NCBI GenBank assembly: GCA_019694575.1
Contig: JAIBBR010000012.1
Span: forward strand, 1 to 64,000
Length of the DNA: 64,000 bases
From: Myxococcaceae bacterium
GTDB lineage: Bacteria; Myxococcota; Myxococcia; Myxococcales; Myxococcaceae
Direction of reading: 5' to 3'
Each line of letters starts with the position of its first letter. Position 1 is the stretch's first letter. The position numbers and the translations under genes are program-made. This document shows, one piece after another, positions 59,235-61,286 of this stretch. The notes under the pieces are model-generated. The model did no database searches. It saw only the letters and a list, made by a program, of their open reading frames with translations, and was not told where the DNA came from.

Positions 59235-59864
59235 ATGTCACGCTTTCCCTTGCGGCCCGTGGCGGCCGGCGCAGAATTCTTGGGCCTCAAAGAGCCTCCC
59301 CATTGGGACACGGCTTTCGGTTCGTCTGGCCCCCTCGAGCTTGAAATTGGCTGCGGCGCAGGCGGTTTTGCGCTCGAGTACTGCAGGCGAAACCCACACG
59401 TTCGCTACATTGCCTTCGAATGGCGAAAAAAGTTCGCCCGTGAAGTAGCCCACCGGGCGCAGGTGCGCGGGCTCACCAACCTCAAGGTCATTGAGGGCGA
59501 CGCCAAGCTCGAAGTGCCACGGCTGTTTCTGCCCGGCTCGTTGGCTGTCATTCACCTGCAATTCCCCGACCCCTGGTGGAAGCGCGCCCACTTCAAGCGC
59601 GCCATCGTGCACCAAGACTTCGCCCGCTTCTTGCTCACGCTGTTGACACCCGGTGGCCTGTTCGACATGCGCACCGACGTTGAAGACCGGGCGCACCAAA
59701 TGCTGAGCATTCTCGAAGCAGTGGGTTTTCATAACGCCTTGGGCAAAGGCGTCTTTCACCCCGCTCTGCCAGAAGAGGTGCCCTCGACACGGGAGCGGCG
59801 ATATCTTGACACCGGCCAGCCCGTGTACCGGGCGCGCCTGACGCGGCCGGGTCAAGAGCAATAG
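59235..59864 (+). CDS. trmB: tRNA (guanine-N7-)-methyltransferase
   Basis: 209 residues. The SAM-binding loop is LEIGCGAGGFALEYCRRNP. The TrmB signature follows as IHLQFPDPWWKRAHFKRAIV, with the substrate-binding Asp and Lys, and the RTDVEDRAHQML block. It methylates G46 in the variable loop of tRNAs. N-terminus is short but complete. It starts 34 bases from the divergent ribF. Confidence 0.94.
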   Translation: MSRFPLRPVAAGAEFLGLKEPPHWDTAFGSSGPLELEIGCGAGGFALEYCRRNPHVRYIAFEWRKKFAREVAHRAQVRGLTNLKVIEGDAKLEVPRLFLPGSLAVIHLQFPDPWWKRAHFKRAIVHQDFARFLLTLLTPGGLFDMRTDVEDRAHQMLSILEAVGFHNALGKGVFHPALPEEVPSTRERRYLDTGQPVYRARLTRPGQEQ

Positions 59865-59874
59865 AAAGAACACC

Positions 59875-60312
59875 ATGCGTCGCTTTGAAGTTACAGCGCG
59901 GTATCTGATCAGTGGCTGCCTGGCGTTATTCGCTCAGAGCTGCAAGCCCGATAAATGGGCCACCCCCGAACGCAGCTACGACACCTTCGTCACAGCACTT
60001 AAGAAGTCTGACCAGGCCATTGCCTGGGAAGGGTTGTCAAAAGCATCGCGGGCCGCTATTGAAAAAGACGTCTCAGCAGCCAAGGCCGTGGCTGGAGACA
60101 TACTCAAAGCCGATGGGGCAGCGTGGGTAATGTCGAGCGGTAAACGCGCGACAGGCGCTGAGCAAGTACGCGTGGTGGAACGTGACGCGTCACATGCGAT
60201 ACTTGAAGTCAAGGGAAAGGGCGTTACGTTCCGCGAGCAACTCGTCTTTGAAGACGGCCAATGGAAGTTAGATCTGACTTCTCGTTTGACACCTGACCCA
60301 AAACAACCGTGA
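59875..60312 (+). CDS. Putative lipoprotein, NTF2-like
   Basis: 145 residues. An N-terminal hydrophobic signal ends at a lipobox-like FAQSC (Cys23). The remainder (TPERSYDTFVTALKKSDQAIAWEGLSKASRAAIEKD ... REQLVFEDGQWKLDLTSRL) reads like small bacterial lipoproteins of the NTF2/DUF4878 kind, with a helix-helix-strand order. Function unknown. It overlaps the next gene by four bases (GTGA) and follows trmB by ten. Confidence 0.75.
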   Translation: MRRFEVTARYLISGCLALFAQSCKPDKWATPERSYDTFVTALKKSDQAIAWEGLSKASRAAIEKDVSAAKAVAGDILKADGAAWVMSSGKRATGAEQVRVVERDASHAILEVKGKGVTFREQLVFEDGQWKLDLTSRLTPDPKQP

Positions 60313-61286
60313 CCGATCGACCCAAACCCAAACCACTTGCGCCACGTGTCGAAGTCGTTCGACGCCCCGCCGGCGCTCCTACGCCGCAAGCCAGCCCACG
60401 GCCCGGCCCTCCCCGGCCCACCGGTACTGTGCCTCGCCCGACGGGCAGCAGCACCTCACCCGTTCCCTCCCGGCGCCCCCCGATGCCCGGTGGCCGCCCA
60501 ATGGGTCGCCCCTCAGGCCCGCGCACGCCTCCCACCACCGCGATGATCGACGACTTGGCGCGTCGAGAACGGGTGCCAGCGCGCATCGCCAAAGGTGAGC
60601 TCGACGGCAAGATGAAGTGCCGCATTTGGAAGAAGCTGCATGGCGAAGAAGCCCGTCGCTTCGACAAGGCGTACACTCTGATGGAAAAGCACCAGGAGCT
60701 CTCGCTCGCCGACGCGTTCGGCGTGGTGCAGAGCGGCTTGCCGGTCGATCAGTTCATGCAGCGCCGGGCGCGGGTAAAGAAAAAAGAAGAAGTGAAGAAG
60801 GCGCGCGGCGAAGTGGCCGGTGACGCAGTCGACGCGTTGCTCAATGGTTGGCTGGCCGCTAACACCGAATTAATGGTGGTGCTCGCTGAACGCACCGCGC
60901 TCGATAACTTGAAGAGCGTCGAGCGCGTCTCGTTTGTCTTCGAGAAAATGGGGCAGACCGAGAAGCTTCAGGTGGTGGCGCTCACCAAACAGGCCCTGTG
61001 GGAAGCGAAAGGCAATTCGTTTGAACGCGACCCCAAGCTGACGCAAACACCGGCTCCGGTGACGCGCCAACCCGCGCGGCGGCCGTACAGCGACCCCCGC
61101 CCTTTTCTCGAATGGGTGGGCAAAACAATCACCATTACACTGCGCAACGGGCTGATTCTCGACTTGCCGCTGCTCGGTGTGGGCCCGTTCGACTTGTTGT
61201 TGGGCACGAAAGAAAACGAAATTTTCGTGCCGCTGCACGCCGTAGCGAAATGGCTGCAGGGCTTGGCGGTAGGGGCCCCTTCGTAG
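60309..61286 (+). CDS. Hypothetical protein with Pro-rich N-terminus and possible Sm-like C-terminus
   Basis: 325 residues from GTG 60309. Residues 1-75 are Pro/Arg-rich and disordered. Residues 80-235 are helical and strongly basic in part (IAKGELDGKMKCRIWKKL, RRARVKKKEEVKKARGE). Residues 270-317 (TITITLRNGLILDLPLLGVG then FDLLLGTKENEIFVPLHAVAKWL) follow the strand pattern of an Sm/Hfq-like fold: a strand with a conserved-looking N-G turn, a bent strand with FDxLL, then V/F-PLHAV like Hfq KHAIS. RNA binding is inferred, not shown. No known gene name. Confidence 0.8.
   Translation: MTDRPKPKPLAPRVEVVRRPAGAPTPQASPRPGPPRPTGTVPRPTGSSTSPVPSRRPPMPGGRPMGRPSGPRTPPTTAMIDDLARRERVPARIAKGELDGKMKCRIWKKLHGEEARRFDKAYTLMEKHQELSLADAFGVVQSGLPVDQFMQRRARVKKKEEVKKARGEVAGDAVDALLNGWLAANTELMVVLAERTALDNLKSVERVSFVFEKMGQTEKLQVVALTKQALWEAKGNSFERDPKLTQTPAPVTRQPARRPYSDPRPFLEWVGKTITITLRNGLILDLPLLGVGPFDLLLGTKENEIFVPLHAVAKWLQGLAVGAPS

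What the first reader, a model, noticed from the sequence alone, without database searches (positions are those of the whole stretch)
60309..61286. Possible Sm/Hfq-like domain fused to a basic helical protein
The last ~50 residues follow the strand and turn pattern of Sm folds, while the preceding region is Lys/Arg-rich and the N-terminus is disordered and Pro/Arg-rich. Together these suggest an RNA-binding protein of unknown type, next to the tRNA methylase gene trmB.
Basis: inference. Interest (0 to 1): 0.5.

Follow-up and report, generated by a model that had tools for sequence, protein, structure and literature searches.

The report
Myxobacterial tandem Sm/Hfq-like protein
A protein found across one family of myxobacteria, which lack the usual RNA-matchmaker protein Hfq, ends in an Hfq-like domain and probably carries a second one, so it is a good candidate for their missing small-RNA helper, although this has not been tested.

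Summary
The 325-aa ORF at 60309-61286 is a conserved, syntenic gene of one myxobacterial family: 56 of 58 genomes of that family, 0 of 40 of other families of its order. Its last ~55 residues form a predicted five-strand Sm fold; all 6 solved structures its profile finds at E<=10 are Hfq or Hfq-like (best 7e-4), and its score against an Hfq profile is reached by 0 of 200 column shuffles. Ahead lie a conserved basic helical domain without a fold match and a basic Pro-rich tail. None of 195 genomes of the phylum has canonical Hfq, and papers suggest that another protein might be the chaperone of the developmental sRNA Pxr, whose spread is nearly the same (55 of 58; 0 of 40), perhaps through single shared events. 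RNA binding, ring formation and sRNA role are untested; several Hfq RNA-contact residues are changed. It fails Pfam's Hfq cut-off: a new architecture of the Sm superfamily, not Hfq proper.

The parts
60309..61286 (+). whole gene, 325 aa: disordered tail + helical domain + Sm1 + linker + Sm2
   Evidence: ORF; homologues in 56 of 98 relatives; dN/dS 0.07-0.16 in the six closest pairs printed, of 802 computed
60309..60533 (+). aa 1-75, Pro-rich basic tail (net +12) that keeps a short V-E-V-[IVL]-R-[RK]-like motif near its start
   Evidence: motif found in 54 of 73 frames examined (some frames cut by contig ends; some loci present twice); tail charge +5 to +14 in those 54
60534..60818 (+). aa 76-170, conserved basic helical domain (E-R-V-P..R-I-A-K-G-E-L..G-K-M-K-C-R-I-W-K-K-L-H)
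   Evidence: 79% mean column identity over 18 sequences; predicted all-helical; no convincing fold match
60822..61019 (+). aa 172-237, Sm1: predicted helix + five strands + helix, Hfq-like fold, net charge -2 (aa 172-236)
   Evidence: block pLDDT 88-93; VIA-align Z 9.4, rmsd 1.4 over 56 residues to Hfq 6gwk_K, all 50 rows shown Hfq; sequence profile not decisive
61020..61094 (+). aa 238-262, basic linker (R-Q-P-A-R-R-P), partly of low confidence
   Evidence: pLDDT under 50 at model 172-180 = aa 247-255; net +2
61095..61259 (+). aa 263-317, Sm2: C-terminal Hfq-like Sm domain
   Evidence: 6 of 6 PDB sequences at E<=10 are Hfq/Hfq-like; hhalign to Hfq E 2.9e-5, 0 of 200 shuffles reach it
59235..59864 (+). 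trmB, upstream neighbour on the same strand
   Evidence: TIGR00091 113.7 bits, cut-off 112.65; upstream in 14 of 14 loci with at least 2.2 kb of upstream sequence, 16 of 56 loci in all, and in 6 of 6 wider loci
59875..60312 (+). small ORF (lipoprotein-like by eye) whose stop overlaps the start of the gene by 4 bases
   Evidence: similar sequence found in 28 of 56 loci

Best explanation
This is a myxobacterial RNA-binding protein of the Sm superfamily with two Sm/Hfq-like modules in one chain. Inferred mechanism: three chains (six modules) close into an Hfq-like ring, and the Sm2 module keeps part of the ring's base-binding pocket. The basic helical domain and the basic Pro-rich tail grip RNA or a partner such as an RNase or the ribosome. 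In a phylum without Hfq it would stabilise small RNAs such as Pxr and help them meet their mRNAs. Shown here: conservation, distribution, synteny, the Hfq-like Sm2 sequence. Predicted: both Sm folds. Inferred only: ring, RNA binding, sRNA role.
For: Sm2 profile: 6 of 6 PDB sequences found at E<=10 are Hfq or Hfq-like; with Sm2 alone 10 of 12 are Hfq or Hfq-like, one is an Sm snRNP protein, one (5btb) is neither. hhalign to a 10-sequence Hfq set: score 28.3, 0 of 200 column shuffles reach it. AlphaFold2 mean pLDDT 83.4, pTM 0.68, two five-strand modules. Foldseek: 46 of the 50 rows shown name Hfq, best E 0.011, none at E<=0.001. VIA-align: all 50 rows shown are Hfq, on the Sm1 module. Hfq N28, G29, H57 are kept in 55 of 55, F42 as F/Y in 55 of 55. 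Canonical Hfq 0 of 195 in the phylum; ProQ 0 of 60 relatives. Pxr sRNA 55 of 58 in the family, 0 of 40 outside, against 56 of 58 and 0 of 40 for this gene. Authors consider an alternative chaperone for Pxr (PMC5684412, PMC5568312) or a stabilising partner of Pxr-S (PMC10217877); passages read. Basic tail and helical domain in the members examined.
Against: Key Hfq RNA-contact positions are changed: K56 to L, Y55 to P and D40 to G in 55 of 55, Y25 mostly V or T, positions 16-18 (rim arginines) absent in the alignment (that these contact RNA is recalled). Sm1 is slightly acidic (median -2, range -5 to +2), and its profile score against Hfq is reached by 1 of 200 shuffles while that of the unrelated helical domain is reached by none. 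VIA-align itself warns that best Z of 7-8 is typical for models without a clear match, so 9.4 is only moderately above. Pfam Hfq is below cut-off, and the window's own Sm2 gives no Pfam hit at all. Pxr and this gene may each have been gained once on the same branch, so co-occurrence is weak evidence. I have no RNA-binding data.
Confidence: 0.55

Rival explanations
1. A general RNA-binding or RNA-decay/translation factor built like ProQ (basic helical N-domain, linker, Sm-like C-domain) that does not match sRNAs to mRNAs.
For: Domain order resembles ProQ as described in PMC4347634 (one passage read) and recalled. Operon-like position behind trmB. Basic tail.
Against: The helical domain does not match ProQ/FinO: hhalign 12.85, reached by 13 of 100 shuffles; Pfam finds no ProQ in 18 of 18 members.
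Confidence: 0.22
2. A type IV pilus-motor partner: like cyanobacterial Hfq, which docks on PilB1, it acts at the pilus base in social motility.
For: pilB and pilT (TIGR02538, TIGR01420 above cut-off in the window) lie next to the locus in 6 of 6 wider loci. Hfq binds PilB1 in Synechocystis (PMC4390875, passages read).
Against: Docking there uses a PilB1 C-terminal tetra-cysteine domain lacking in PilB of other bacteria; the PilB here has no cysteine in its last 60 residues. pilB/pilT are on the opposite strand with ribF between.
Confidence: 0.1
3. The Sm folds serve only for oligomerisation or protein contacts; no RNA is bound.
For: Lost K56 and rim arginines; acidic Sm1.
Against: F42 (F/Y), H57, N28, G29 equivalents kept in 55 of 55; basic tail and helical domain.
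Confidence: 0.13

Closest known systems
Hfq (Pfam PF17209), incl. Methanocaldococcus jannaschii MJ1435 (2qtx, 5dy9)
   Same: Predicted five-strand Sm fold; N-G turn, aromatic residue at F42 and H-A positions kept; best profile hits in PDB
   Different: Fused in a 325-aa chain with a second Sm-like module, helical domain and tail; Y-K-H-A is P-L-H-A; rim-arginine positions missing; below Pfam cut-off
ProQ / FinO family (PF04352)
   Same: Order of parts: basic helical N-domain, basic linker, Sm-like C-terminal domain (ProQ layout from a PMC4347634 passage and recall)
   Different: Helical domain has no detectable ProQ/FinO similarity; two Sm-like modules instead of one
Cyanobacterial Hfq (3hfn, 3hfo)
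   Same: Hfq-like fold (both among the VIA-align rows); T4P ATPase genes nearby here; a role at the pilus base is documented there
   Different: Single domain (recalled); docks on a PilB1 extension that the PilB here seems to lack
cNMP-binding + weak Hfq-like fusion of a neighbouring myxobacterial family (L049, L050, L051)
   Same: Hfq-like domain at the C-terminus of a larger protein in an Hfq-less myxobacterium
   Different: Other N-terminal domain (PF00027), about 221 aa, one Sm-like module; not found by the A2 profile in those genomes

Membership tests
Hfq (PF17209) | Score over the curated Pfam cut-off (27 bits) | tested here: not met
   0 families at E<=5 for the whole protein; Sm2 alone: Hfq is a sub-threshold hit in 3 of 18 members, best E 0.093, none for the window's own
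Hfq (PF17209) | Hfq Sm2 motif [Y/F]-K-H-A | tested here: not met
   P-L-H-A: H in 55 of 55, A in 54 of 55, but P and L in 55 of 55
Hfq (PF17209) | N-G turn after the first strand and aromatic residue at position 42 | tested here: met
   N and G 55 of 55; F 49 or Y 6 of 55
Hfq (PF17209) | Hexameric ring that binds RNA | not testable with these tools
   No multimer prediction or binding assay available
Sm/Lsm fold superfamily | Five-strand bent sheet with N-terminal helix, C-terminal module (Sm2) | tested here: met
   Prediction (four-residue helix only); Foldseek rows mostly Hfq; profile evidence
Sm/Lsm fold superfamily | Same fold, middle module (Sm1) | tested here: met
   Prediction only: VIA-align Z 9.4, rmsd 1.4 over 56 residues, all 50 rows shown Hfq; sequence does not confirm
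ProQ/FinO (PF04352) | FinO-type helical RNA-binding domain | tested here: not met
   No Pfam ProQ hit in 18 of 18 members; hhalign score reached by 13 of 100 shuffles; fold search by itself inconclusive
Cas5a (TIGR01874) | Score over the NCBIfam cut-off (23.05 bits) | tested here: not met
   19.7 bits, E 0.00066, on aa 154-223

The most novel reading that the evidence does not exclude
A single-chain double-Hfq (trimer forming a pseudo-hexameric ring with two kinds of module) that stands in for Hfq in this myxobacterial family, with its own new helical RNA-gripping domain, and is the missing chaperone of Pxr and other developmental sRNAs.
Probability: 0.3. Interest if true: 0.85.

Novelty: new variant of a known kind. 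Interest (0 to 1): 0.64.

Why it matters
Myxobacteria control multicellular development with a small RNA, Pxr, yet lack Hfq, and authors have suggested that another protein might do its job (PMC5568312, PMC5684412). This names one concrete, conserved gene to delete and tag. It would also show a bacterial Sm protein that joins two different Sm modules in one chain.

Tried and rejected
Viral contigs hold no relative by the scan. Pfam and NCBIfam give no family above cut-off for the whole protein; a sub-cut-off Cas5a hit was dropped because Pfam and the fold search do not repeat it. Sm1 against Sm2 by profile: no similarity, so an internal duplication is not shown; Sm1 finds no PDB sequence at E<=10. 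ProQ/FinO for the helical domain: rejected at the level tested, although the alignment that came up pairs the K-M-K-C-R-I-W stretch with the ProQ P-L-K-I-G-I-F stretch. DUF1780 (PF08682) is a weak lead for the helical domain: 5 of 18 members, best E 0.031; 1y0k (PA4535, hypothetical protein), the only PDB sequence at E<=10, has E 0.78 over a similar stretch. The helical domain alone found 18 Foldseek rows at E<=10, best E 3.0, and VIA-align Z at most 3.5; a family not listed there is not excluded. Of four weak PF17209 hits among 98 relatives, three are the cNMP-binding fusion (one search had read two of them on the wrong strand) and L052 lies in an unrelated-looking frame that I did not check further. 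dN/dS over all 802 pairs is unreliable (maximum 4.5, probably rows of equal length with an indel); only the six closest pairs (0.067-0.158) are used.

Results against the reading: changed RNA-contact residues, acidic Sm1, Sm1 profile score reached by 1 of 200 shuffles while the helical domain's was reached by none, so sequence does not single out Sm1; no Foldseek match at E<=0.001.

Full report
What is there. The window lies in a 5.28 Mb genome in 220 contigs. The named genomes that hold relatives bear titles such as Myxococcaceae, Archangium, Archangiaceae, Myxococcales and Cystobacterineae. The ORF 60309-61286 codes for 325 aa. It starts with GTG inside the stop of a small ORF (GTGA overlap), which follows trmB; this looks like one operon (inference).

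It is a real and constrained gene. One scan of genome contigs gave 17 relatives. A profile of 18 sequences (A1) finds it in 56 of 98 relatives searched: 56 of 58 genomes of the same family and 0 of 40 of other families of the order. The two misses, G004 and G042, are listed as 98% and 85% complete. In 195 genomes of the phylum the helical domain occurs in 92, all in this family (92 of the 96 family members listed), once each. The C-terminal domain occurs in 93 of those 96 and once, weakly (E 0.0072), outside; a few genomes have a second or partial match. In 55 core sequences, 57 residue positions are at least 98% conserved. The six closest pairs have dN/dS of 0.07-0.16. The order pilT-pilB-ribF (opposite strand), trmB, then this gene is kept in 6 of 6 family members fetched with wide flanks; pilB, pilT, ribF and trmB of the window pass NCBIfam cut-offs. 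trmB lies upstream in 14 of 14 loci with at least 2.2 kb of upstream sequence (16 of 56 loci in all; most others are too short).

The C-terminal domain. Two profile searches agree that it is related to Hfq. A1 finds six PDB sequences at E<=10, all Hfq or Hfq-like (2qtx is deposited as uncharacterized MJ1435 and titled Hfq-like), the best at 7e-4 and 8e-4. The C-terminal profile A2 finds twelve: ten Hfq or Hfq-like, one Sm snRNP protein, and one entry that is neither, 5btb. Pairwise hhalign against ten Hfq sequences taken from plasmid records gives score 28.3 and E 2.9e-5 over 50 columns; the best of 200 column shuffles is 16.2 and the reversed profile gives 10.4. AlphaFold2 predicts five strands at aa 273-317 with block pLDDT 90-93. 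In Foldseek 46 of the 50 rows shown name Hfq, though none reaches E<=0.001 (best 0.011). Pfam's Hfq model stays under its cut-off.

The middle region. AlphaFold2 predicts a helix and five strands at aa 172-227 as well. VIA-align places it on Hfq: all 50 rows shown are Hfq, Z up to 9.4, rmsd 1.4 over 56 residues, at 7-19% identity in the rows shown. The tool's own note says that a best Z of 7-8 is usual for models without a clear match. Sequence does not confirm the relation: hhalign to Hfq gives 18.7, reached by 1 of 200 shuffles, while the unrelated helical domain scores 15.4 with 0 of 200; Sm1 does not match Sm2 and finds no PDB sequence. So the second module is a prediction of fold, with decent confidence, not a demonstrated homologue.

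The N-terminal parts. Aa 76-170 is the best conserved part (79% mean column identity; Sm1 64%; Sm2 64%), all-helical, net charge +4 to +9 in 55 sequences, with no convincing fold or family match. The tail is Pro-rich and basic and keeps a V-E-V-I-R-R/K-like motif near its start in 54 of 73 frames examined.

RNA-contact positions. Through the hhalign pairing, Hfq N28, G29 and H57 are kept in 55 of 55, A58 in 54 of 55 and F42 as F or Y in 55 of 55; D40 is G, Y55 is P and K56 is L in 55 of 55; Y25 is mostly V or T; positions 16-18 have no counterpart. Which of these touch RNA is recalled from the Hfq literature. The pocket is therefore partly kept and partly changed: RNA binding is plausible, but with other preferences.

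What it does. Canonical Hfq is found in 0 of 195 genomes of the phylum searched with PF17209, while five of 14 control genomes ring over the cut-off. ProQ is found in 0 of 60 relatives, with E. coli ringing as control. Two papers on the developmental sRNA Pxr say that myxobacteria have no hfq and that another protein may act as its chaperone (PMC5684412; PMC5568312), and a third considers a missing stabilising partner of Pxr-S (PMC10217877); passages read in each. Pxr (RF01812) is found in 55 of 58 family genomes and 0 of 40 others of the order, 25 of 98 genomes over the Rfam cut-off; in the window's own genome it scores 44 bits, below the cut-off of 80. This near-identical spread fits a chaperone-client pair, but both may have arisen once on the same branch, so it is weak support. 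The pilus rival, modelled on cyanobacterial Hfq at PilB1 (PMC4390875, passages), loses weight because the PilB here has no cysteines in its last 60 residues.

In print. The listings (open-licence papers only; some listings were capped) showed no title that describes this protein, and the 2025 Pxr paper PMC11928866 does not contain the words Hfq, chaperone or RNA-binding. Subscription papers were not searchable.

Verdict. The Sm/Hfq-like C-terminal domain is very likely at the level of fold and homology. The tandem-Sm layout is probable. The RNA-chaperone role is the best reading, at about 0.55.

Noticed in passing
The same layout is read in L050 and L051 (hits). Another possible Hfq-like fusion in Hfq-less myxobacteria.
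   Followed up: partly
L081:1442-1717 (G017): A 92-aa frame that holds only a diverged copy of the Sm2 module (E 2.7e-18), beside the full-length gene elsewhere in that genome; no Pfam hit.
   Followed up: partly
window 60348-60365 and relatives: Short conserved V-E-V-[IVL]-R-[RK]-like motif at the start of the otherwise disordered tail; could be a docking peptide.
   Followed up: partly
window 60534-60818: Helical domain has weak similarity to DUF1780 (PF08682, best E 0.031, in 5 of 18 members).
   Followed up: no
G007, G036, G011, G028 and others: Several Pxr matches in close tandem, about 300 bases apart, in some genera; PMC5568312 (passage) reports tandem pxr paralogues in Cystobacter.
   Followed up: no
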